From: Planoprotostelium fungivorum
Lineage: Eukaryota; Evosea; Variosea; Cavosteliida; Cavosteliaceae
Assembly: GCA_003024175.1 (NCBI GenBank)
Contig: MDYQ01000128.1
Coordinates: 62,001 to 126,000, forward strand
Direction of reading: 5' to 3'
Length of the DNA stretch: 64,000 nucleotides
Made by a program: the position numbers and the translations under genes. The notes below the pieces were generated by a model, which saw nothing but the letters and a program-made list of their open reading frames with translations, was not told the origin of the DNA and ran no database searches. Numbering within the stretch: the first letter of the stretch is position 1; the number at the start of each line of letters is the position of its first letter. Of the stretch, positions 1,377 through 53,000 are shown piece by piece.

Positions 1377-2302
1377 TTATAATTTATCCTTCTGTTCAAC
1401 TCTATAATTGATACTCCATCTCTTCTTGTTAAAAAATGATCTCTTCAGCCACCGATGGCTCAGCACCTCCTTCATCGTAGGTCGTGCCATCGGCTTCAGT
1501 TCCAGCATCCACCCCACTAGCTCCTTTGCATCGTCGCTGACGTCGATGTCTTCTGGCCAGTACAAGTCTGGCTGCACTCTCATGCGTGGCACTTCTGTCG
1601 GATCGAAGGGCAGACAGCCAGTGAGAAGGATGTGTAAGACGATGCCCAGTGACCACACGTCTGAGCTAGCCGGCTCGAACGGCATCTTTCGCCAGACTTC
1701 TGGTGAGGCGTAATCAGGTGAGCCTTCGAATTGATGACACAGATCCAGAGTCTCAGTGGCAAGGCCAAAGTCGATGAGAGTGAGGTGGTCGTCTTTGCCT
1801 ACCATGATGTTCTCTGGCTTGATGTCCAAGTGTGCGATGCCTTGTTTGTGACTGTGTTCGAGTCCTGCAGAGAAGATGAGAATGGATGTGTGAGATGATG
1901 TGATGTGATTACCTTTGGCGAGGCCCTTGAACATCTTTCTGGTTCTGTTTTCTGAGAAGTGTCCAAAAGACTCTTCTTGCAGAAAGTCGAAGAGGTTGCA
2001 GCCTTCCACAACGTCCATCACCAGACAATGGTCGGTGGTCGTTTCGAATTTGGCACGCATGCGGACCAAGTTGGGATGTTTGAGTCTCATTCCAGCGTTG
2101 TATTCTCTTCGTGCGATCTCCTCTGTGCTTCGTGTCGCCGTTTTGTTCATCTTCTTCAAGATGAAGTCTGTTTCTCCAGTGGACGCGCGATAGACTGTTC
2201 CATAGCCGCCTGTCACCATCAGCTCGAGTGATTGAGAGTTCGATCACCTCTTCCGACTCTCTCTTTGATCTCCATGTGTCTGCTCGTCTCCCTGCGTCCC
2301 AT
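1377..2302 (-). CDS. CAMK-like Ser/Thr protein kinase, array copy K1
   Basis: Three exons: 2302-2248, 2209-1913, 1864-1377, giving 279 aa. It is almost only a kinase domain: Gly loop GRGGYGTV split by intron 1, the ATP lysine in FILKK, the alpha-C Glu in RREY, catalytic loop AHLDIKPEN (HRD appears as HLD, keeping the Asp), IDFGLAT, YASPEVW for the APE motif, and DVWSLG. The catalytic residues are present, so it should be active. The HPNLVRM and ILLTGCLPFDP segments look CAMK/SNF1-like. The start at MGRRETSRH is chosen by alignment with sister genes and because a TATA-like element sits about 50 bp upstream. Intron 2 (48 nt) has no in-frame stop. Substrate unknown. K2 is its closest relative, a recent tandem duplicate. 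Confidence 0.88.
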
Positions 2303-2791: not shown

Positions 2792-3717
2792 TCAAAATTT
2801 ATCCGTGTGTTCAACTCCAGCGTTGATGCTCCACCGCTTCTTGTTAAAAAATGATCTCTTCAGCCACCGATGGTGCAGCACTTCTTTCATCGTCGGTCGC
2901 GCCATCGGCTTCAGTTCCAGCATCCACCCCACTAACTCCTTTGCATCGTCGCTGACGTCGATGTCTTCTGGCCAGTACAAGTCTGGCTGCACTCTCATGT
3001 GTGGCACTTCTGTCGGATCGAATGGTAGACAGCCAGTGAGAAGGATGTGTAAGACGATGCCCAGTGACCACACGTCTGAGCTAGCCGGCTCGAACGGCAT
3101 CTTTCGCCAGACTTCTGGTGAGGCGTAATCAGGTGAGCCTTCGAATTGATGACACAGATCCAGAGCGTCAGCGGCGAGGCCAAAGTCGATGAGAGTGAGG
3201 TGGTCGTCTTTGCCTACCATAATGTTCTCTGGCTTGATGTCTAAGTGTGCAATACCCTGTTTGTGGCTGTGTTCGAGTCCTGCAGAGAAGATGAGAATGG
3301 ATGTGTGAGATGATGTGATGTGATTACCTTTGGCGAGGCCCTTGAACATCTTTCTGGTTCTGTTTTCTGAGAAGTGTCCAAAAGACTCTTCTTGCAGAAA
3401 GTCGAAGAGGTTGCAGCCTTCCACAACGTCCATCACCAGACAATGGTCGGTGGTCGTATCAAATGTGCCTCGCATGCGGACCAAGTTGGGATGTTTGAGT
3501 CTCATTCCAGCGTTGTATTCTCTTCGTGCGATCTCCTCTGTGCTTCGAGATGGCGTTCTGTTCATCTTCTTCAAGATGAAGTCTGTTTCTCCAGTGGACG
3601 CGCGATAGACTGTTCCATAGCCACCTATCACCATCAGCTCGAGTGATTGAAAGTTCGATCACCTCTTCCGACCCTCTCTTTGATCTCGATGTTGCTGCTG
3701 TGCTCCCTCTGTCTCAT
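2792..3717 (-). CDS. CAMK-like Ser/Thr protein kinase, array copy K2
   Basis: Exons 3717-3663, 3624-3328 and 3279-2792 encode 279 aa starting MRQREHSSN. It is near-identical to K1 over exons 2 and 3 and both introns (38 and 48 nt in each), and the two genes are offset by 1415 bp. Upstream sequence is also partly shared, so the duplicated unit included the promoter. Differences from K1 lie in the first residues, a few surface positions (ADALDLC versus TETLDLC) and the last ten residues. Gly loop, FILKK lysine, HLD catalytic loop and DFG are intact. Confidence 0.88.
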
Positions 3718-6867: not shown

Positions 6868-7886
6868 ATGCCGATAAACGCGGACCATCTCTACGGCAAC
6901 GACTCGTGGGCAATAAAGAAGGACCGAAAGACATTATCACCACACGCAGCACAAGACAGACACATGAGACAGATCGAAAATCGCCAACTGCAGATCAGAG
7001 AGATGATTGGGAGAGGTGATGCACGTGTGGTGAATCAACCGAATTGACCATCTCAGGTGGCTATGCGACAGTCTTCCGCGCATCGATGGGAGAGATCGAT
7101 GTCACCTTGAAGACGATGATGAAGACACCATCAAGCAGCTCGGAAGAATTAGCTCGTAAGGAATACGATTTCGGTATGAAGTTGAAGCATCCCAACTTGG
7201 TCCGCATGCGTGGCTCTTTCGACACAGACACCGACCACTGCCTCGTCATGGACTTCGTGGAAGGCTGTGATCTCTTCGATTACCTCCATAATCACCCGCG
7301 CGGCCACTTGACAGAGAACTGGGTGAAGAAGATGTTCAAAGGTCTCGCGAAAGGTGACAGCCACTCTCATGTGAGAACCCATTCTCATCTGGTTTCAGGA
7401 CTCGAACACAGCCACAAACAAGGCATCGCACACTTGGACATCAAGCCAGAGAACATCATGGTAGGCAAAGACGACCACCTCACTCTCATCGACTTTGGCC
7501 TCGCCGCTCACACTCTCGGTCTCTGTCATCAGTTCAAAGGTTCAGCCGACTACGCTTCACCAGAAGTCTGGAAACGCATACCTTTCAAGCCAGCTTGCTC
7601 CGACGTGTGGTCACTGGGTATCGTATTACATATCCTTCTCACTGGCTGCCTGCCCTTCAACCCCGAGGATGTCCCACACATGAGAGTACAGCCAGATCTC
7701 TACTGGCCAGAAGGCATTGACGTCAGTGACGATGCGAAGGAGCTAGTGGGGTGGATGCTGGAACTGAAGCCGTTGGCACGACCGACGATGAAGGAAGTGG
7801 TGCACCATCGGTGGCTGAAGAGATCTTTCTCCGCCATGATGAAGAGGTCACGATCGTTCGGTTCGGGGTGTGAAGCTTCACGTTAA
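6868..7886 (+). CDS. CAMK-like Ser/Thr protein kinase, array copy K4
   Basis: The only array copy on the plus strand. Exons 6868-7015, 7057-7353 and 7399-7886 give about 310 aa. It carries an N-terminal extension of some 32 residues (MPINADHLYGNDSW...) before the MRQIENRQLQIRE segment with which most copies begin. The upstream start is preferred because of the TATA spacing; the start at 6964 is the alternative. Gly loop GRGGYATV, VTLKTMMK lysine, HLD catalytic loop, DFG and SPEVW are intact. Intron 2 (45 nt) is a multiple of three without a stop. The inversion relative to its sisters suggests a local rearrangement. Confidence 0.85.
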
Positions 7887-15476: not shown

Positions 15477-16403
15477 TCAATTTCTGCTCGACAGTTCGTT
15501 CTTCCCTCCAATGCTCCACCTCCTCTTGATGATCGTTGACAGCGACCTCTTCAGCCACCGATGATTCAGTACTTCCTTCATCGTCGGTCGTGCCATTGGT
15601 TTCAGTTCCAGCATCCATCCCACCAGCTCCTTCGCGTCGTCGCTGACGTCGATGTCCTCTGGCCAGTACAAGTCTGGCTGCACTCTCATGTGTGGCACTT
15701 CTGTCGGATCGAAGGGCAGGCAGCCAGTGAGAAGGATGTGTAAGACGATGCCCAGTGACCACACGTCTGCACAGGCTGGCTCGAATGGCATGTTCCTCCA
15801 CACTTCCGGTGAAGCATAGTCGGCTGAGCCGCTGAACTGATGACAGAGACCGAGGGTCTCAGCAGCGAGGCCAAAGTCGATGAGAGTGAGGTGGTCGTCT
15901 TTGCCTACCATGATGTTCTCTGGCTTGATGTCTAAGTGGGCGATGCCTTGTCTGTGACTGTGTTCCAAGCCTGTTAGATATTTAGATTGTGAAGGATGGT
16001 GGTGAAAGTCACCTCTTGCGAGACCCTTGAACATCTTCTTCACTCGGCTCTCACCAAACGGTCCGAAAGAGTTCTTCTGCAGGAAGTCAAAGAGGTTGCA
16101 GCCTTCCACTACGTCCATGACGAGACAGTGGTCGGTGTCTGTGTCGAAAGAGCCACGCATGCGGACCAAGTTGGGATGCTTCAACTTCATGCCAAAGTCG
16201 AACTCTTTGCGAGCCACTCCCTCTGTGCTGCGTGATGGTGTCTTGAGCATCTTCTTCAAGATGACGTCTGTCTCCCCCATCGATGCGCGGAAGACTGTTC
16301 CGTAGCCACCTGTCACAGTCAGATCCTGTCTCATCACTCACGATGCCACACCTCTTCCGACTCTCTCTCTGATCTGCAGTTGGTTGTTGTCGATCTGCCG
16401 CAT
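15477..16403 (-). CDS. CAMK-like Ser/Thr protein kinase, array copy K6
   Basis: Exons 16403-16352, 16309-16013 and 15970-15477 give 280 aa, starting MRQIDNNQLQIRERVGRG. All kinase motifs are intact (GRGGYGTV, VILKKMLK, AHLDIKPEN, DFGLAAETLGL). The catalytic half is near-identical to K5. Intron 2 is 42 nt, a multiple of three and stop-free. A TATA-like TTTATAAAT lies at 16442-16450, about 40 bp upstream of the start. Confidence 0.88.
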
Positions 16404-18520: not shown

Positions 18521-19452
18521 TTATACTCTGGTCGATAATTCGATCTTTCCTCCAATGCTCCACCTCCGCTTGATGATCGTTGATAGAGACCTCTTCAGCC
18601 ACCGATGACTCAGCACCTCCCTCATCGTCGGTCTCGCGAGCGGTTTCAGCTCTAACATCCACTGGACTAGTTCCTTTACGTCGTCACTGACATCTATATC
18701 TTCTGGCCAGTACAAGTCCGGCTGCACTCTCATGTGTGGCACCTTGACCGGGTCGAAGGGCAGACAGCCAGTGAGAAGGATGTGCAAGACGATGCCCAGT
18801 GACCATACGTCTGAACAGGCGGGCTCGAAGGGCATGTTCCTCCACACTTCTGGTGAGGCGTAGTCGGGCGACCCCTTGAACTGATGACAGAGGCCGAGTG
18901 TGTGAGCAGCGAGGCCAAAGTCGATGAGAGTGAGGTGGTCGTCTTTGCCTACCATGATGTTCTCTGGCTTGATGTCCAAGTGGGCGATACCTTGTATGTG
19001 ACTGTGTTCTAATCCTATAGGGGTTAAAATTTGACAACTTACAACGATGAAAGAGTCACCTCTTGCGAGACCCTTGAACATCTTCTTCACTCGGCTCTCG
19101 CCAAACGGTCCGAAAGAGTTCTTTTGCAGGAAGTCAAAGAGGTTGCAGCCTTCCACTACGTCCATGACGAGACAGTGGTCGGTGTCTGTGTCGAAAGAGC
19201 CACGCATGCGGACCAAGTTGGGATGCTTCAGCTTCATGCCAAAGTTATACTCCTTGCGAGCGATCTCTTCCATGCTTCTCGAAGGAGTCTTCATCATCGT
19301 CTTCAGGATGACATCGGTGTCTCCCATTGATGCACGGAAGACTGTTCCGTAGCCACCTGTCACAGTCAGCTTTGGTCATCATCTATGCTCGACGCACCGT
19401 TTCCGACTCGCTCTCTGATCTGCAGTTGGGTGTTGTCCATCGAGTGCCTCAT
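18521..19452 (-). CDS. CAMK-like Ser/Thr protein kinase, array copy K8
   Basis: Exons 19452-19398, 19356-19060 and 19014-18521 give 281 aa, starting MRHSMDNTQLQIRERVGNG. Gly loop GNGGYGTV, VILKTMMK, AHLDIKPEN, DFGLAAHTLGL and SPEVW are present. Intron 2 is 45 nt, a multiple of three and stop-free. A weak TATA-like ATATAAT lies near 19501, 50 bp upstream. Confidence 0.88.
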
Positions 19453-38148: not shown

Positions 38149-39056
38149 TCAAATTCTTCCCAGACTCCATCTTCTCTTGCTGAACATCGATTTCTTCAAC
38201 CATCTATGATTGAGAACTTCCTTCATGGTTGGACGTGCTCTCGGTCTGACTTCCAACATCCAATCGATAAGCTCTTTGGCATTATCACTGATGTCAATGT
38301 CTTCCGGCCACTCGGAAGTCCGGTCGAATAGTCATCTCGGCGGCCAACCTGGGATCGAAAGGAAGACGTCCGGTTAAGAGGATGTAGAGGACGATGCCCA
38401 GTGACCACACGTCGGCGCATCGCGGGTCGTACGGTGTCTGCTTCCATATCTCAGGTGAAGCGTAGTTGTGTGTGCCTTTGAATTGATGGCACAAGCGAGT
38501 CTCAGCGGCGAGGCCAAAGTCGATGAGAGTGAGGTGGTCGTCTTCACTGACCATGATGTTCTCTGGCTTGATGTCCAAGTGGGCGATACCCTGTCTGTGA
38601 CTGTATTCTAACCCTGCTCGAAGGATGAGATTCTCATCCATCCAATGATGAGACGAGTTACCTTTCGCCAGGCCTTTGAACATCTTCTTGACTCGGCTCT
38701 CGGGCAGGTTGGCAAAGTTCATGTCTTCTAAGAAGGTGAAGAGGTCTACACCCTTCACGAGGTCCATGACGAGGCAGTGGTCGGTGTCTGTATCGAAAGA
38801 GCCACGCATGCGGACCAAGTTGGGATGCTTCAGCTTCATGCCCAAATCGTATTCTCTGCGTGCCACGGGTTCCATGCTACGTGACGGTGTCTTCATCATC
38901 GTCTTTAAGACGAGGTGTTGGTGGCCAGCGGTCGCATGAAAGACCGTCCCGAAACCGCCTGCCAGTAGTGTCCAGCACCGCACATCTCGAACATGATGCA
39001 TCACCCTGTCCTACGACTTCTATGATCTCCAATTGTGCTACTTCTATATCTTTCAT
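38149..39056 (-). pseudogene. Kinase family member K9, frameshifted
   Basis: Exons 39056-39005, 38958-38662 and 38613-38149; start MKDIEVAQLEIIEVVGQG. Kinase motifs GQGGFGTV, LVLKTMMK, AHLDIKPEN and DFGLAAETRLC are intact. Relative to its sisters, one extra base lies near 38314 in exon 3: after MTIRPDF the frame runs RVAGRH and stops, while the next frame continues EWPEDID and ends LKKSMFSKRRWSLGRI. The total exon length is one more than a multiple of three. Either a recent pseudogene or an assembly error; without the base it would be about 270 aa. It lies 19 kb from the rest of the family and is the most divergent copy. Confidence 0.75.
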
Positions 39057-39855
39057 CGTTTGGCGTAGTTGTGTGTATGCTGTGCTGTTGTTGTGTTACG
39101 AATGATCGTTTACCAGTGAATCGTGTGTTGTCCAGGCTATCGTTCTGAGAAGCTCTGAGAACGATCCAAGTGCGGATGATACTATAGCCTGACGTTAAGG
39201 AATCGATCATCCCACACTTTGCCTGGAGCATTCCGAAATCGGTTCATCAAAATCTGGTGACCCTTTCTACCGTTCCACTCCTGCTCCGAGTACTCATCCT
39301 TCGTTAGGAATCTCATGGAAATGAGCGTCGGTGATCATCAAAAGTCAATAGAGAGCGAGGAATCGACCCCTGCGACTGATTAAGGAGAGGGGACGAGCGT
39401 AAGGGAGTGATGTTCCCTACGATTGCATATAGTGCGGTCGCGCTAAATGTATGAATCCGAAGAGGACAATGATCGATGAATATCATTATGATGCAATCGG
39501 CCCGATATGTTGGGGTGACTCCTGCGGAGTCACATCATGGCTCATCATCAGCCCAAGTTATAGACATTATTTAGCATATCTGAAGTTACCTTCGTTTTAT
39601 TGAAATCAGACCAGATTAGTGTATCGTCACAGTTGGAGCTTCCTGCAGCGAGAAGTCGTCAAGCCAATACATAGACATTATCTAACCCTCCCGCTGGCCT
39701 CGTCACTTGTTGTTTCGGACTGACTCCTTGCAGCCCTGCCATCAACGCCTTCATCGTCACTCTCTCTTCTACTTTGTCTCTCAAGCTGCTGCTGTCACTC
39801 TCTCGTTCTTTGTACGTCTCTTTCTCTCACCATTGCGTGACGAGAGAAGACCAGT
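39057..39855. other. Intergenic region with a short perfect palindrome
   Basis: Contains a perfect 8-bp stem with a 3-base loop, GTGACTCC-TGC-GGAGTCAC at 39515-39533, and two similar words (TAGACATTATTTAGC near 39558, TAGACATTATCTAAC near 39673). No gene recognised. The end of the neighbouring receptor gene may extend into it. Confidence 0.4.
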
Positions 39856-42800
39856 CTACATCGTCAGCGATACATCCATCTTCACTCGCCTAATGTTCGT
39901 CAACCCTGAGATGAAATGAATACATGAGGATGTCCTCACGTGTACGTCGAGAGAGCCAGACAAGATCTTGAAGGCCACTGTTCCTACACTCCACCTGTGA
40001 AAGAATGAGAAGAAAGAACGGGTTGATGGACTCACACGTCAGACGAGAAGGTGTTCTTCTTCTCTCTCGCTGCCTCTGGTGCCTATAAAGACGTAAGTTG
40101 ACATCTCATCGAGATTCTGCAGCTCACAGTGTACTGAGGCGTGTACACAAACGCACGTGAGGGTGACGACAGCTTGACTGTGCCATCCTGGGAAACTAGG
40201 ATCTTCCTGGGAACGATGTTGCCATGGACGTAGTTGTTCTCGTGCAGATAATGAATGGTCGATGTGATTTGTAGAATTCTATAGTCATGTGAGCCAGATA
40301 AAACAGCATCGAATGGAATAATCAATGTAGACAGATGTCTCACATGTCTTTTCCTTCCTTACTCTTCACCTCTGTCCTTGTCATATACTATCTCGTGTCA
40401 CCTCGTCTGCTCTCTCTACACTGGATATCGCTCACCGTGTGTAGATCAAGTTTGTCCATATACTCTGTCACCATGCATGTCATATTCCCTTCGCTGTACG
40501 TCTCGATGTATAACAGCACGTTCGGATGATGCAAGTTCTAATTGTACCAGATCAGCGGAGATGAATAAAAATTTCATTTATGAAAATAATAATAATAAAG
40601 AAGAAGAATTGATTATCGGTTTACCCTGAGTGTGTTTGTTTCGTGTAGCATCTTGTTTCGATCTTCGCTCTTCTTCACTGCCACTGCTGTCATTCCTGCC
40701 TTCTGTCCCACATACACTACACTCTTCTCTCCTCTTCCTATCTCTCTCTCGCACGTTACATCCTGTACTACATCACCATTCCGTGATCATTCATCTCCAA
40801 TCATACCGTGATGATAGACAGCTTCATGTCAAAATGTTTCGTGCTCTTTCTCTTACGAAGTACAAGGACGACGATGATGATGATGCCTGATGAGTTTATT
40901 CTACGTCACTTTACATCGATTCACCTGAAACCAAGGCGATGGCAGCGATAAACGGTAGGTATCGCAGAGAATTCGTGGATCTCGGTAAAATTTCCGTCAC
41001 AACTCCGAGTGTAAAATTGGTCAGGTGATCGCACAGACACGTCACACTTGTCACGTTGACATACGTGTCACATCCATCACTGATCCAGCCTCTCTGCTTC
41101 TGGTTCCACCACAAGCAGACGAAACCTACATAACAGGTCATTTGAGATAATACATTGCATCTTACCTGAAGAGGATCGATTTAGAGGTAAGGGTATGATG
41201 ATGTGGATGAGAGAAGCCGAATTTTGTACGGACAGGAGAGAGCCGTTGATGTTGTAGATGCTCAGTCCGATGACGTTTCCCGCGCTTTTTCAAATTTGAA
41301 TATTCGTCATCATTCAAGTTGCTCTCACGTTGTATAGGTGTCGTTCGTGGTGACGAATGGATTCTTTGTCAGTTGCGTCAGAACAGCGTAATCTCCGCTT
41401 GTCGTTGCGACATCGCGTATGACATCTTGCGGTATGTAACATCTCGTCTCACTCTCGTTGACTGACAGTGAGAGAGGCTGCTCTGACTGCTCATGTCTTC
41501 AGATCACTACACTCTGTAACTGATGCTCACCTGCAGTCGGGCAGCAGAGATAGACACATTGGCTGACCTCAGCTCATACGTAGTCGAGTTCTGCAAGCCA
41601 GAAGTGACTAGTCGATCTACAAAGCTGTACACATCTGCCGGACTGGCATCGTTCAACTGCAGCGAAGTCACGGGATGAACTCTGTACGTTCATCCTCACC
41701 CCTTGTAACAGTAGAGATTTCACATCGATGGTCTCGTTGCTGAATGTGAGATCCAACGCATTGCTCCCGAATGAAAAGTAAGCGATAAATCTTACACCCT
41801 CGAGATTGTATGGTATGCGACATAACGTGCGAACTTTCGAGTCTTCAATTGAGACAGGAATGAGACTGACACTCCCTCCCAACTCGAATCGGACGGTACC
41901 GTTCCAATCATGGATCATCAGATCGACGATGATGCTTCCGTTCATCACGGATACCGTCTTGTTGTATAGAGGAGGATCGGGTGGCAGAGTGAAATTGAAC
42001 TCCTGTCCTCCAGATATCGCGGTCCACGTAGAGCCGGACGATTCAGTGAGATCCAGCGACAGACACCACTCTTTAGAGGGAGATTTTGATAGCCCTTTGT
42101 CGATGATGCGATCTGAGGCGGAGAGAGCCAAGGATGGGCCGACGTTGTGACCGCAGAGGATGGAAATGTTTGTATGAAGCCCCGTGATAGAGGTGACGTT
42201 GAAAGCGGGATAATTGTAAGAGTAGTAAGCTCTGTCGGAGTCTGCGATTTGGATATAGAGGGTGAGCTGAGGTCGATTGGACATGGGTGGTACCATCGGG
42301 ACGTAATCGGAGGATATGGTGTAAATCACAGAGTCACCATTGAAGAAGCTGTTGATGCCGGATGCGTTCCAAAAGGAGCCGTTGAGGGCTGCCAATCCAC
42401 CTTCTACACCACCAGGTGATGTGAACTGGACGAGTGAGCGGATGATTCCAGAGAAAATGAGCAGATGGATGTGATTTGAAAGGCACCTCATATATGATGG
42501 AGCTCTTCCACAGTATCGTGTCACCCTTGAGCATCAAGACTCCCGAATCATCCATAGAGAGGTTGCATTTGGAATAGTGAACGCCATCTCTGACGATTGG
42601 AGCATTCCACAAAACTCCAGCGGCTGATTGGAAGACCAGACTGCAATCTGTGCGAGATGTAAATTGCGGAACAAAGACGCAACCTCACTATCTCGTAATG
42701 TGAGATTCGCATTGAATAGGCGTCCAGACGCGAGGGCGCTCTTAGCGTACGATAGTGGCTGCCATCTTGCAAAGGAAGGACTTAAGCCCTCGTATACTCC

Positions 42801-42994
42801 CAACCACGAGCTAGAATTCCATGCGAGCCTCCATCGACCATTTGGAGAGATAAGTTCATCATCCGGGGATAGAGTTCCAACGCTCATTTGTGATGCTGGT
42901 TGCACCGCATGTACTGCAGTTAAAAGAAGGATGAATCTGTACGTCGGTCACTCAAATGTTTGCAATAGAATGTGTTGTCTCGTCACCTCAGCAT
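39856..42994 (-). CDS. Bulb-lectin, GAIN/GPS, single-pass receptor with pseudokinase domain
   Basis: Exons 1-5 are firm: 42994-42987 (8 nt), 42936-42689, 42647-42487, 42425-41700, 41656-41531; further exons run to about 39856. Signal peptide MLRFILLLTAVHA. A bulb-type lectin domain follows (ELISPNGRWRLAW, CSLVFQSAAGVLWN, CNLSMDDSGVLML, TILWKSS), then a large Asn-glycosylation-rich ectodomain. A GAIN-like region (GDYAVLTQLTKNPF, GNVIGLSIYN) ends in a GPS site, GWISDGCDTYVNV and CLCDHLTNFTLGV, with the expected HL-T cleavage point. One membrane segment (LPFIAAIALVSGIIIIVVLVL) precedes basic RKRK. The cytosolic kinase fold keeps IGRGEKSVVYV, AVAVKKS and LHHPNVLLY, but the catalytic loop is HGNIVPRKIL instead of HRD, and DFG is replaced near VKLSSPS. 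It is therefore a pseudokinase. Confidence 0.8.
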
Positions 42995-43217
42995 GTCGCT
43001 GTTTGTGTACCCTTGATTCAGAGTGTGACACCCCAAGGACATTGATTGACACGCACCCCTATCGCATTCGGATGTGAAATGGAGTGGAAGTGATAGTATA
43101 AGGTGCTTCTGTCGTGTCTGTCTCGGCCGCCCATGGAAGGAAGAGAGGGAGCCGCGGAGTGTTGTCTTTGTCATCATGATGACGAAATTAAACGATGCAT
43201 TGTGATGCACAAAACAT

Positions 43218-43899
43218 TTATTTGCTCGATGCCAACATCTTGACAAAGTCCGCACAATTCAGCTGTCCGGTCGCTGCCACACGATCAACACACATCATGT
43301 CTCAGATATCCCACCTTCTATGTCCGCTTCCCTCAGTATCTCGTCCACCTGTGCCATCCGTCAACACGATTTCTCATGTCTTCCTTCACCTCTTCTTCTG
43401 ATAGTTTATCCCCCATAGTCGTGAGCAGATATCTCAACTCCGCCGATGAGATCATGCCACTCTTCGAATAAGGAGCGAGAGCGTTGACAATGTCTCCGTC
43501 TGAGATGGTTCTCTTTTGTTGACTCTACAGAGAACGAATGTGAGATGATGATGTGGGACGGATGTTGTCATGCATACCTCTGTGATCTTTGTGAATGTCT
43601 CCAGATCGAAACCTTCTGGTGACTTGCAAAATTGGGCGGTCAGATCTTTAATATCTGCCTGATGCGTGTTGATAAATCTAAATCATCCAACACACATGAT
43701 CTTTCAAAATTATGTCCTCACCTGCGTCGGCGAGAATCCAACGGAACATAGAAGAGTGCCTGTTCTCTGTGTCAGCTGGCTGCCCATCGAATCCGAACAA
43801 CTCACATAACTCTTTTTCAGACACTCGTCCGTCTCCATCTCGGTCGAACAGATTGAAGTTGTCTCGACATTCCGCGATGAGCTCTGCGCTCAATGGCAT
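43218..43899 (-). CDS. Calmodulin-like EF-hand protein
   Basis: Starts at 43899 (MPLSAELIAECRDNFNLF); five exons, the first 43899-43722, stop at 43218. The first EF loop, DRDGDGRVSEKE, is canonical. The later hands (SDGDIVNALAPY with SAELRYLLTTMG, and ATGQLNCADFVKML) have lost acidic ligands, as in myosin light chains or calmodulin-like regulators. About 150 aa. It probably binds calcium at one site and a helical target such as a myosin neck. Confidence 0.75.
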
Positions 43900-44000
43900 T
43901 GTGGGTTGCAGATGAGATCTTGAAAAGTTTTTATCTCGCACAACAGAAAAAAGCCGGTTCCTACATCACATCACATCTCATTCAGATCACATCAGGAGAC

Positions 44001-50000: not shown

Positions 50001-53000
50001 ATCAGAGGATGACGTGGCGCAGGGTTGAAGGTCTTGATGCACGCGAAATCGATCAATAACCCGGAGAACAATTATCTGATGACGCCCATCCACCTCGCCT
50101 TCTCCAACGCTTATCTCAATCGTCTCGATCTCATCGAAGATTCGAACCTCTTCCGCATCAATCGTAATCAGAGACAATTCAAGGTGGGACGGTTCATACC
50201 GTTCATCGTGATCTGACGGCGAACAGTTGGATCGAATCGAGTGTGCGAGGATGATTGTAGATGCAGAGCACGGCATCAAGAGTGCTGACGTGGGGAAGAA
50301 AGATTTATGTGGAATGTCACCTTATCAATATCTACTATTGGACTATGACGATGCCAGAGAAGATCTCAAGATCGCGCGTCCGGAGTTCAGAGATGCGCAG
50401 GTGATGATTCGTCACATCATCAATTCATCACCCTTCGATGTCTCATCCGTCTTCGTTCGATGTCTCATCTTTGATGTGCTCATCCATCATCCTTTGATGT
50501 GCTTATCCATCACCAGATCATAGAAGAATGCAAGAAGGTCCACGAGAAGCTGTACGAGATCATCGAGATCACACAGGAGAAGATGGAAACCTTTCGCTAC
50601 ATCTACGCGGTGAAAGCCTTCTTCTGGACAGGAGTTCCTTATCTCGTCTGGCTCTTTGTTCTCATGGGAGTAGCCTTCAACATCTCCACACGCAACGACC
50701 AACAGAATTTCTACTTCTTTCAGAGTATCTCGGTTCCCCTCTACACAGATCAATTCCAAGGCATCTCTGTCGTCGGCGATTGGTACACTTGGTCGACTGG
50801 AACGTTCATGCCGTACATCACTGGAATGGATTGGTACGATAGCAGTAGACCACCAAAGGACTCTCTCACTGGAATTCGTTTGATCGGTGAGTGCCATCGA
50901 CATCAACATCATCACATCAAACATCACATCGATAGCATCACATCCACATCATGAACATCAACATGACACATCGACATCTTAAAATCGACATCACCGACAT
51001 CATCAGTATCGATATCATCCATATAAATTTGATATCATCCACATCCACATCATGATGATGGCGAACAGGTGGTATATTGATCAGACAATCACGTTCTCCC
51101 GCCACCTCCTGCAAGATTCCTTCTGCCTTGGATCAGAATTTAACCACGTGCTACAGTGAAGGAGTAGAGGAGACAAAGGACAGTTACGGACCAAACAACA
51201 CGTACACGTGGACCGACAGAGGTCATCGAATCTGGGCTCCATCGGGCGCCGTATACTCGGCAGGAGGCTTCTCCATCTTACTCTCTCCCGATCTGAACAG
51301 TTCTCTCAACGTTCTAGATGACTTGAACAAGAACGGTTTCGTCGATGGACAGGTGATGACGAGATGAGATCGTGCCGATATTGAATGATGCGACAGACGA
51401 GCGTGTTGACTACCGAATTCTCGCTGTGGAACGTCAATCTAAACACGTTGGCCTGTGTCAGGATTTTGATCGAGTTTACGGCCGCGGGAAATCCGTTACC
51501 GCAGGCACAGATCACGTTGCAGAAGGGGGTTCGATTCTTACTGGCGGAAGATTATTTTGTCTGCGTTCTCGAGGTGAGAAGATACAACATGACATGATGA
51601 CTGTGTATATATATCTTCGACTTGATTCGGGAGATACTGAAGAGGGACAGATCCTGGTTACTCTGTATTGGTTGTTCGAGTTTGTGTACAGAGAGCTATC
51701 GGAGGTGAGATCATCCGTGACACGAAGATCACTCACACCTTCTCGCAGATCAAAGCACTCGGTTTCGCATACCTCAAACAGCTGTGGAACTACTACGAAT
51801 GGTTCATCCTCCTCCTCTTTGGAACCGTCGTAGGGTTACGCATCACAGCGTACGTACTGTACGGCACGACCGAGTGAGCACCACTTTGACAACCTCCACT
51901 ACTCCTCCTGACTCTTCCAGTTTCGATATCCCGATCACAGACTGGAACGACTATTACAATCTCAATCAGAGCATGTACCTCGTTCAGCAACTCTTGTCCT
52001 TTGTCATCTTTCTCGCTTCCCTCCGTGCAGTCAAATTCTTCAAGATTTTACCTTACACGGGCCGCATCACTTCATCCATATTGAACGTGAGTAATGATCC
52101 ATCTCTGTCTTATCTCATCACGTAACAGACTCTATCGGACAAAGTCTTCATCGTCTTTGTCATCTTCTACTTGTATGTTATCCTCACGTTTGCCATGTCA
52201 TATCACCTCTCCTTCGGTTTCACATACGAGAACACTCGCACCTTTTCCGATTCCATATTGGAGCTCTTGAGAATGATCACGGGTGACTCGTCGTACGACA
52301 ACATCGAGCCGTTCAATCGAGTCTTCCATCAGCTCTTCTTCATCTTCTTCCTCTGCTCCTCCCTCATCTTGACCAACATGGTGAGTCGCGTGAAGAGTAA
52401 ACGAAGGGACTGAACTTGATATCAGTTTATCGCCGTTCTGAGCGATCTGTACATCAGTTTGAGACAGAGTGATTCCTTGATGTGGGATCTGTACATCACA
52501 GACCTGATGATCTCGTCCCTGAGGAGGCAGAGAACGATGGAGTTGTTTGTCGAGTGGGTTCACAAGTCCATCTTGACCACAGCCTCCAAAGTGAAGGAGA
52601 CCAGTGATGTTGTCGTCTTAGCCCTTCAAAATGTGAGTTTGAAAGATCTCGTTTACATCATGGAAGGGATGTTTGTTTGAATGTAAGAATGACCCGAATA
52701 ACAGGATAAGAGTCACGATATCGAAGACGAAGAAGAGAAACCGGTGCAGGATGATGAAGAAGATAATCAAGGAGAAGAGGATTTTGTCATGTCTGATGAT
52801 CAATTGGAGGACGCTGTGATCGGTTATTCTAACGGAAGAAGCGAGAGATCGACATTAGAGGTAGGGCCTCCGTTATTCTTCTGCAGTATGTTTAACGATT
52901 GGATTCAGATCTACCAGTCTGTCAGTGAATTACACACGGCCGGTGAAAAGCACACAAAAGACATCTTTGGCACGGTTCACAAACAGATGAAGAACGTAGA

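What the first reader, a model, noticed from the sequence alone, without database searches (positions are those of the whole stretch)
39856..42994. Receptor joining a bulb lectin, a GPS self-cleavage site, one membrane helix and a pseudokinase
GPS/GAIN regions normally precede seven-helix or polycystin-type membrane parts. Here CLCDHLTNFT is followed by one helix and a kinase fold with HGN for HRD and no DFG. With a mannose-type lectin outside, it could be a prey-recognition receptor that signals after shedding of its ectodomain.
Basis: partly seen in the sequence, partly recalled or inferred. Interest (0 to 1): 0.85.

Follow-up and report, generated by a model that had tools for sequence, protein, structure and literature searches.

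The report
Amoeba receptor pseudokinase with cleavage domain
A soil amoeba carries a cell-surface receptor that joins the self-cutting domain of animal adhesion receptors to a single membrane helix and a kinase domain that has lost its catalytic residues, and about a hundred sister genes in the same genome seem to share this layout.

Summary
The window is from Planoprotostelium fungivorum (Amoebozoa); a deposited 867-residue protein is the exact splice of 17 window exons, 43042 to 39659 (-). Layout: bulb-lectin-like domain, unassigned region, GAIN domain with intact HL|T site, one helix, pseudokinase (HGN for HRD, SPS for DFG), tyrosine tail. Family profiles match solved adhesion-GPCR GAIN domains (23 of 25 PDB hits; 10 of them well beyond the GPS) and bulb lectins, but this copy lacks the mannose motif. 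It is not a one-off: the genome has at least 150 GPS sites, some on duplicate contigs; a kinase-like exon lies 342-1219 bp downstream at 104 of 150, against 0 of 150 upstream. All 75 models, partly overlapping sets, show a hydrophobic segment just after the GPS; none of the 71 long enough shows HRDxxxxN or DFG. Cytoplasmic dN/dS medians are near 0.3 in the 39 of 83 pairs that could be scored. Three capped searches found no GPS-plus-kinase protein elsewhere. Cleavage, ligand and signalling are inferred.

The parts
42987..43042 (-). Exon 1; deposited start at 43042, more likely start ATG 42994-42992 (opens MLRFILLLTAVHAV)
   Evidence: choice of start is inference from the hydrophobic N-terminus
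42487..42936 (-). Exons 2-3 (42936-42689, 42647-42487): end of the hydrophobic N-terminus and bulb-lectin-like (beta-prism II type) domain, residues about 28-155
   Evidence: profile match to PDB bulb lectins, best E 8.4e-13; Pfam silent
41700..42425 (-). Exon 4: ectodomain of unassigned fold; reaches the start of the GAIN region
   Evidence: pLDDT mostly under 50 in both models
40989..41729 (-). GAIN region, residues 388-577 (end of exon 4, exons 5-8)
   Evidence: AF2 block pLDDT 66-89 over residues 411-570, mostly beta; family profile to aGPCR GAIN, best E 3.8e-12
41010..41120 (-). GPS motif, residues 534-570, CLWW...W..GC...CLCDHLTNF
   Evidence: PF01825, 35.3 bits; 41.6 bits on DNA; coordinates
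41019..41027 (-). H565-L566|T567 predicted self-cleavage triad (bond between L, 41024-41022, and T, 41021-41019)
   Evidence: invariant in 20 of 20 aligned members; cleavage not tested
40846..40970 (-). Single transmembrane helix, residues 584-612, interrupted by intron 40924-40887
   Evidence: hydrophobicity; helix 588-613 in the model at pLDDT 44-61
39728..40812 (-). Pseudokinase domain, residues 624-845 (exons 9-17)
   Evidence: PF00069 E 1.1e-29; block pLDDT 55-88 over 621-800 and 47-80 over 801-840; the 50 listed Foldseek hits are kinases
40670..40672 (-). Beta-3 lysine K656 (VAVKK), retained
   Evidence: in at least 90% of 20 aligned members
40640..40642 (-). Alpha-C glutamate E666, retained
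   Evidence: invariant in 20 of 20; 30 of 31, one gapped
40344..40387 (-). 44-nt mini-exon YMTRTEVKSKEGKDI
40218..40226 (-). HGN in place of HRD
40158..40166 (-). SPS aligned with DFG
39671..39673 (-). Tail tyrosine in DNVYVLA-stop, 4th residue from the end
39659..39791 (-).

Best explanation
It is a single-pass GAIN receptor pseudokinase and one of about a hundred or more such genes in P. fungivorum. Shown by sequence: a lectin-fold ectodomain, a GAIN domain with the GPS hallmarks, one helix, and a kinase-fold cytoplasmic domain that keeps the beta-3 Lys and alpha-C Glu but has lost HRD Asp, catalytic Asn and DFG Asp, then a short tail with a tyrosine. Inferred: the GAIN domain cuts itself between Leu566 and Thr567 during maturation and the fragments stay non-covalently joined; the ectodomain (this copy lectin-like, others LRR) binds a surface or secreted ligand; ligand or pulling force removes or rearranges the N-terminal fragment; with no seven-helix bundle to receive a tethered agonist, the change acts through clustering or conformation of the helix and pseudokinase, which works as an allosteric scaffold for an active kinase; the tail tyrosine may be phosphorylated in trans and dock SH2 proteins, which this genome has in number.
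For: Gene: exact match of the deposited protein to 17 window exons. Topology: 21 N-glycosylation sequons in residues 1-585 against 1 after residue 610. GAIN: 23 of 25 PDB matches of the family profile are aGPCRs, and in 10 of the 23 the match begins at profile position 126 or earlier, well before the GPS at about 164-204; C, W, W, GC, C and HLTNF invariant in 8 of 8. Family: at least 150 GPS sites; kinase-like exon downstream on the same strand at 104 of 150, controls 0 of 150 upstream and 2 of 150 on the other strand. A hydrophobic segment starting 12-37 residues after the start of HLT in 42 of 42 locus models and 33 of 33 deposited proteins. In 31 deposited proteins aligned to an intact kinase, no Asp at the HRD place in 31 of 31, none at the DFG place in 30 of 30 (one gapped), no catalytic Asn in 31 of 31; no HRDxxxxN or DFG by pattern in 40 locus models and 31 deposited proteins long enough to tell. 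Cytoplasmic dN/dS medians 0.27, 0.33, 0.32 in 22, 10 and 7 pairs. Tail tyrosine: in the last 12 residues of 26 of 34 deposited proteins against 38% of internal windows. SH2: 79 exon-level matches over the cut-off.
Against: No cleavage, ligand, expression or signalling data. Pfam's GAIN model (PF16489) finds nothing in the genome, though its controls were silent too. In 13 of the 23 aGPCR matches only the surroundings of the GPS align. The full-length model is poor overall (mean pLDDT 56; ectodomain mostly under 50), and a second job gave 36. 46 of 150 GPS sites had no kinase-like match; five of these were read and show kinase-like sequence in my models, two of them (L029, L045) incomplete; 41 are open. 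Some GPS sites lie on duplicate contigs, so genes are fewer than sites (2 identical pairs among 42 models). Unread sites with high-scoring kinase exons (C362, C394, C109, C149) could hold intact kinases. Locus models can be mis-spliced and so miss a motif. The nine closest pairs in the dN/dS test all belong to a divergent subclass, not to the window gene's class, and 44 of 83 pairs were dropped by the divergence and length filter. A strict tail motif matched only 6 of 34. Retained Lys and Glu leave nucleotide binding, even odd catalysis, possible.
Confidence: 0.62

Rival explanations
1. Adhesion receptor with a relic kinase: the ectodomain holds the cell to prey or substrate, GAIN cleavage is used for release, and the degenerate kinase domain has no signalling job.
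For: Loss of the catalytic residues in every member long enough to judge.
Against: Purifying selection on the cytoplasmic part: dN/dS 0.03-0.28 in the nine pairs with dS below 0.35 (all of one divergent subclass), 0.03-0.68 and medians near 0.3 over the 39 pairs kept; Lys, Glu and the PE of APE retained in the aligned members; tail tyrosine kept.
Confidence: 0.12
2. Unconventional active kinase: the domain transfers phosphate or AMP by a non-canonical mechanism, as some degenerate kinases do.
For: Beta-3 Lys and alpha-C Glu retained; sequence hits include both active CSK and ULK4, which I recall as a pseudokinase.
Against: No Asp at the HRD place and no catalytic Asn in 31 of 31, no Asp at the DFG place in 30 of 30 aligned members.
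Confidence: 0.1
3. Constitutive maturation only: GAIN cleavage is a folding or trafficking step, the fragments never part, and signalling is by ordinary ligand-induced dimerisation as in plant receptor kinases.
For: LRR or lectin ectodomains plus one helix plus kinase fold match the plant RLK plan.
Against: The cleavage triad is strictly kept: 42 of 42 locus models read HLT[NS]F (the anchors were found by GPS similarity, so this is partly by selection). This fits a functional cut but does not separate the two uses.
Confidence: 0.22
4. Artefact: two genes, or a wrong splice, make a false fusion.
For: Deposited models in this genome do contain fusions with neighbours, e.g. P0003 with a La protein.
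Against: GPS to kinase coupling repeats at 104 of 150 sites with tight spacing and near-empty controls; same order helix after GPS in 33 of 33 deposited proteins.
Confidence: 0.03

Closest known systems
Adhesion GPCRs (ADGR family)
   Same: GAIN domain with GPS, Cys/Trp pattern and HL|T site; modular ectodomain; profile match E 3.8e-12 to ADGRG1
   Different: One helix, not seven; pseudokinase in the cytoplasm; TNF[TS][LI][GA] after the cut in the sequences listed instead of the tethered-agonist consensus TxFAVLM (PMC12716839, passage)
Polycystin-1 / PKD1-like proteins
   Same: The other GPS-bearing group that I recall as well described; GPS before a membrane part
   Different: No channel part found: the 11 PKD_channel matches in the genome lie at none of the 150 GPS sites; the nearest is about 11 kb from the window's GPS, on the other strand
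Plant LRR and G-type-lectin receptor-like kinases, including their pseudokinase members
   Same: LRR or bulb-lectin-type ectodomain, one helix, kinase fold; depositors used such names for P0005, P0008, P0018 and others
   Different: GAIN domain between ectodomain and helix; every kinase read here degenerate; organism is an amoebozoan
GPCR-TKL/K and GPCR-TK fusions of choanoflagellates, oomycetes and amoebozoans (PMC12716839, passages)
   Same: A receptor part fused to a kinase in protists
   Different: Those have a seven-helix bundle; none seen here
LRR-RLK-like proteins of non-plant eukaryotes surveyed in EukProt (PMC13091385, passages)
   Same: LRR, one helix, kinase, Amoebozoa included
   Different: The main text has 0 occurrences of GPS or of this genus; its supplements were not seen
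Bulb-type mannose lectins (GNA group)
   Same: Family N-terminal profile hits them, best E 8.4e-13
   Different: This copy lacks QxDxNxVxY and is below Pfam detection

Membership tests
Adhesion GPCR | GAIN domain with GPS | tested here: met
Adhesion GPCR | Seven-helix bundle after the GPS | tested here: not met
   One hydrophobic segment in P0001; 75 of 75 models have one just after the GPS, and 11 of 75 show further weaker ones (1.61-2.32) at least 136 residues on; 7tm_2 search empty, but its controls were empty too
GAIN domain | Cys/Trp pattern and HL-T/S site | tested here: met
   C, W, W, GC, C, HLTNF invariant in 8 of 8
GAIN domain | Homology beyond the 45-residue GPS (subdomain B) | tested here: met
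   10 of 23 aGPCR alignments start at profile position 45-126, before the GPS; beta-rich model of residues 423-574
GAIN domain | Complete helical subdomain A | tested here: inconclusive
   Only two helices, 390-400 and 403-418, modelled before the beta part
GAIN domain | Autoproteolysis | not testable with these tools
   needs expression
Polycystin-1-like | PKD channel part near the GPS | tested here: not met
Receptor-like kinase | One helix between ectodomain and kinase fold | tested here: met
Receptor-like kinase | Signal peptide | tested here: inconclusive
   Hydrophobic N-terminus read by eye and a helix 14-26 in the model; no predictor was run
Receptor-like kinase | Catalytic residues HRD, DFG | tested here: not met
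Pseudokinase | Loss of at least one of VAIK-Lys, HRD-Asp, DFG-Asp | tested here: met
   HRD-Asp and DFG-Asp lost; Lys kept
Pseudokinase | No phosphotransfer | not testable with these tools
   needs assay
Bulb (B-type) lectin | Beta-prism II sequence profile | tested here: met
   family profile against PDB: 37 sequences at E up to 10, nearly all of them proteins that I know as bulb-type lectins, best E 8.4e-13
Bulb (B-type) lectin | Pfam B_lectin over cut-off | tested here: not met
Bulb (B-type) lectin | Mannose motif QxDxNxVxY | tested here: not met
   (motif recalled from memory)

The most novel reading that the evidence does not exclude
P. fungivorum senses its surroundings largely through a class of cleavable receptors not described before: GAIN modules wired to single-pass pseudokinases, expanded to 100-150 genes by tandem duplication with swapped ectodomains. 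They signal without enzyme activity, by exposing or clustering a dead kinase scaffold and a tail tyrosine that SH2 proteins read. The GAIN module would then be a general mechanical or ligand switch, not tied to seven-helix receptors.
Probability: 0.35. Interest if true: 0.9.

Novelty: new variant of a known kind. Interest (0 to 1): 0.75.

Why it matters
As far as I know, GAIN domains are studied almost only in adhesion GPCRs and polycystins, where cleavage is explained by a tethered agonist that engages the membrane bundle. A large natural family with an intact GAIN site but a single helix offers a test of what cleavage does without that bundle. A receptor family in which every kinase read so far is catalytically degenerate, yet under purifying selection where that could be measured, is also a good system for how pseudokinases signal. 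A 2023 survey that included this species found no GAIN domain in amoebozoan family 2 GPCRs (PMC10445921, passage); here GAIN is abundant, but on other receptors. This bears on when the GAIN and seven-helix parts were joined.

Tried and rejected
Separate-gene hypothesis: rejected. Seven-helix or polycystin part after the GPS: not seen in 75 models; PF00002 gave nothing, but its controls were empty; PF08016 gave 11 matches, none at a GPS site. Mannose binding by this copy: not supported. Pfam B_lectin on single sequences: silent; in the genome only C109 reaches the cut-off, with its neighbours in the frame added (3 candidates). Pfam GAIN PF16489 on the genome: silent, controls silent. Structure job 2 with five sequences for the ectodomain: mean pLDDT 36, not used. 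Foldseek on model 1: at least 2,000 matches, the 50 listed all kinases, so it gives no independent test of GAIN or lectin. My first gene model had a phase error at 40435-40279 and was typed with an X there; corrected from the deposited protein. Beta-3 Lys in the script: the columns slipped, so I cite. A strict tail motif ([DEN]x(0-2)Yxx[hydrophobic] in the last 14 residues) matched only 6 of 34; the claim is therefore only that a tyrosine sits near the end. A megablast of 2 kb of the gene against the phage collection gave no match. In one search, 11 of 75 models showed extra hydrophobic segments (1.61-2.32), all at least 136 residues after the HLT; two first segments are as weak (L022 1.71, L036_3530 1.63), which I put down to mis-splicing. 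Literature: the listings (nine searches) showed no paper on a GPS/GAIN receptor-kinase family in this species; passages were seen of PMC12716839, PMC13091385, PMC10445921, PMC2939053, PMC11237637 and PMC13197933, no paper in full. The genome paper and the GAIN structure paper (identifiers recalled) were not held and I saw nothing of them.

Full report
What it is. The window lies in a 36.9 Mb genome of 471 contigs. A protein identical to the window gene, P0001, is deposited for Planoprotostelium fungivorum, an amoebozoan of class Variosea. Splicing 17 exons between 43042 and 39659 on the minus strand gives P0001 letter for letter; all 16 introns are GT-AG, 38 to 87 nt. The first 16 residues of the deposited model precede a better start at 42994, which opens a hydrophobic stretch (MLRFILLLTAVHAV); this choice is inference.

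Lectin part. Pfam does not see a B_lectin domain in P0001 or its relatives. An alignment of five family N-termini (A2; from P0001, P0002, P0003, P0005 and the second ectodomain in P0004) matched 37 distinct PDB sequences at E up to 10, nearly all of them proteins that I know as bulb-type lectins or lectin-like bacteriocins, best E 8.4e-13. I take the fold as supported. Sugar binding is another matter: the motif QxDxNxVxY (recalled) does not occur in P0001, and among P0001-P0005 only P0002 has it, once.

GAIN part. The GPS scores 35.3 bits (cut-off 22.5). A profile of eight family GAIN regions matched 25 PDB sequences, of which 23 are adhesion GPCRs (best E 3.8e-12) and two are pyrophosphatase entries at E 0.68 and 1.6. 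In 10 of the 23 the best stretch starts at profile position 45 to 126, well before the GPS at about 164 to 204; in the other 13 only the GPS and its surroundings align. The P0006 region search also returned five animal adhesion GPCRs, E 5.4e-7 to 1.1e-4. AlphaFold2 with 20 family sequences gave block pLDDT of 66-89 over residues 411-570, mostly beta strands after two helices, then one helix at 588-613 of lower confidence. A complete helical subdomain A was not seen. H-L-T is invariant in 20 of 20 aligned members. Two deposited lectin-type models, P0004 and P0005, score below the GPS cut-off because a GPS exon is missing from them; the locus of P0005 does encode it (L009).

Membrane and cytoplasm. 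P0001 has one hydrophobic segment above threshold, 584-612. The ectodomain carries 21 N-glycosylation sequons and the cytoplasmic part one, which fits the topology. The kinase domain scores E 1.1e-29 and the 50 Foldseek hits listed for the model are kinases. HRD reads HGN, the catalytic Asn reads Lys, and the DFG place reads SPS; beta-3 Lys656 and alpha-C Glu666 remain.

The family. PF01825 gave 150 matches in the genome, all over the cut-off, with 150 of 176 candidates scored, so 150 is a lower bound for sites. It is not a count of genes: several contig pairs carry matches of equal score (for example C5 and C120, C185 and C187), and two pairs of my models are identical over 60 residues, so the assembly holds some genes twice. 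I fetched 40 regions around the 40 best-scoring sites; this sample is biased to high scores and to tandem clusters. A home-made splice program produced 42 models downstream of GPS anchors, 40 of them distinct. All 42, and all 33 deposited family proteins P0001-P0033, have a hydrophobic segment that starts 12 to 37 residues after the start of HLT (score 1.63 to 3.71, above 2 in all but two); 11 of the 75 show further ones (1.61 to 2.32), at least 136 residues on, in or beyond the kinase. Twelve of the 33 deposited proteins correspond to a locus model, so the two sets overlap. For the whole list, kinase-like matches from six searches fall 342 to 1219 bp downstream on the same strand at 104 of 150 GPS sites, against 0 of 150 upstream and 2 of 150 downstream on the other strand (searches entered in full, only the eight rows near GPS sites; three of the 104, on C362, C394 and C109, rest alone). 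Of the 46 without a match, five belong to the fetched regions, where my models show kinase-like sequence (L029 and L045 incomplete); 41 are open. Ectodomains: of 34 deposited members met here, five are lectin-type (P0001-P0005) and 29 carry LRR (P0006-P0033, P0039). But 28 of these 29 were returned by a search with an LRR-type query, so the ratio says little about the genome; I did not classify the ectodomains of the locus sample.

Dead but kept. Aligned to an intact kinase, 31 deposited proteins show no Asp at the HRD place in 31 of 31, no catalytic Asn in 31 of 31, and no Asp at the DFG place in 30 of 30, one being gapped; alpha-C Glu is kept in 30 of 31, one gapped. By pattern, none of 40 locus models and none of 31 deposited proteins long enough to judge contains HRDxxxxN (R, L or C at the second place) or DFG in the stretch examined; four were too short, and a mis-spliced locus model could miss a motif. 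The neighbouring kinase in the window, with HLDIKPEN and DFG, is of the kind that these patterns match. A divergent subclass among the loci (L010 and others) also lacks a recognisable beta-3 VxVK. For selection, 83 pairs of relatives were compared and 39 kept (dS between 0.05 and 1.5, at least 100 codons): median dN/dS of the cytoplasmic part 0.27 (22 of 45 pairs), 0.33 (10 of 10) and 0.32 (7 of 28), range 0.03 to 0.68. The nine pairs with dS below 0.35 (0.03 to 0.28) all belong to the divergent subclass; the window gene has no relative close enough for the test. The estimates use only well-aligned stretches, which lowers dN somewhat. A tyrosine sits in the last 12 residues of 26 of 34 deposited proteins (24 tyrosines lie 3 to 7 residues from the end) and 17 of 21 short locus models, against 38% of internal windows (p 6e-6, sequences not independent) and 3 of 22 unrelated kinases. 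A stricter motif matched only 6 of 34. The genome gives 79 exon-level SH2 matches. Against a uniform picture: one search shows strong kinase exons next to GPS sites that I could not read (C362, C394, C109, C149), and these may be intact; two sites with strong scores that I could read (C34 = L047, C70 = L027) are degenerate.

Elsewhere. Three protein searches returned no GPS plus kinase protein outside this species: 6 of 6 hits P. fungivorum; 28 of 33 P. fungivorum and 5 animal aGPCRs; 5 of 27 P. fungivorum and 22 other proteins, none showing PF01825 in its Pfam list, though a few long lists were cut in the print. These searches need shared 5-residue words and relatives with deposited proteins, so close relatives without annotated genomes are untested.

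How it most likely works. Self-cleavage at Leu566-Thr567 in the secretory path, a heterodimer at the surface, an ectodomain that binds a ligand, and a change in the helix and pseudokinase on release or rearrangement of the N-terminal fragment. The first step follows from knowledge of GAIN domains; the rest is inference. A tethered-agonist mechanism as in adhesion GPCRs has no obvious receiver here. The retained Lys and Glu and the selection suggest a structured scaffold that acts on a partner kinase; the tail tyrosine and the SH2 repertoire suggest an output. Prey recognition is plausible for a fungus-eating amoeba, but no result here tests it.

In print. A 2023 survey that includes this species states that no GAIN domains were detected in family 2 GPCRs of Amoebozoa (PMC10445921, passages). 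[quoted passage not shown] A 2026 survey reports LRR-RLK-like proteins in Amoebozoa, without GPS or this genus in its main text (PMC13091385, passages). I found no description of this family in the listings; the genome paper was not available, so I cannot exclude that it mentions them. Depositors already label many of these proteins as LRR or lectin receptor kinases, hence 'new variant of a known kind'.

Noticed in passing
window 1377-2219 (-), 2792-3634 (-), 7044-7886 (+), 15477-16337 (-), 18521-19363 (-), and 38294-39010 (-): Array of closely similar CAMK-like kinase ORFs with HLDIKPEN and DFG, apparently each with one short in-frame intron; one sits directly downstream of the receptor gene.
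   Followed up: partly
window about 43218-43900 (-): EF-hand (calmodulin-like) gene just upstream of the receptor, with DRDGDGRVSEKELCELFG, read by eye.
   Followed up: no
window 51946-52383 (+): Weak PKD_channel/TRP-like match (E 0.001, one stop inside).
   Followed up: no
G000 C1, C3, C58, C196, C277, C335, C351, C388, C467: GPS sites occur in clusters, e.g. ten on C351 and seven on C1, which suggests expansion by local duplication.
   Followed up: partly
L010, L013-L018, L022-L025, L030-L032, L037: A divergent subclass whose cytoplasmic domain lacks HRD and a recognisable beta-3 VxVK motif and reads KLWDFR or KLWDLR where DFG would be; still a hydrophobic segment after HLTSF.
   Followed up: partly
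G000, PF00017 matches: 79 exon-level SH2 matches over the cut-off, a large number for an amoeba as far as I recall.
   Followed up: no
P0003, P0004, P0006: Deposited gene models that fuse a receptor with a neighbour (P0003 a La-related protein; P0004 two receptors in a row; P0006 a long N-terminal stretch without a Pfam match), so annotation of this genome needs care.
   Followed up: no
window 39830-39789: Tandem acceptor CAGCAG before the last exon; the deposited model uses the first AG (adds a serine), my first model used the second.
   Followed up: yes
G000:C109:180028-180360 (-): The one stretch of the genome that reaches Pfam's B_lectin cut-off (34 bits with neighbours); it lies about 4.2 kb upstream of a GPS site on the same strand (C109:175681-175800), whose kinase exon scores high.
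   Followed up: no
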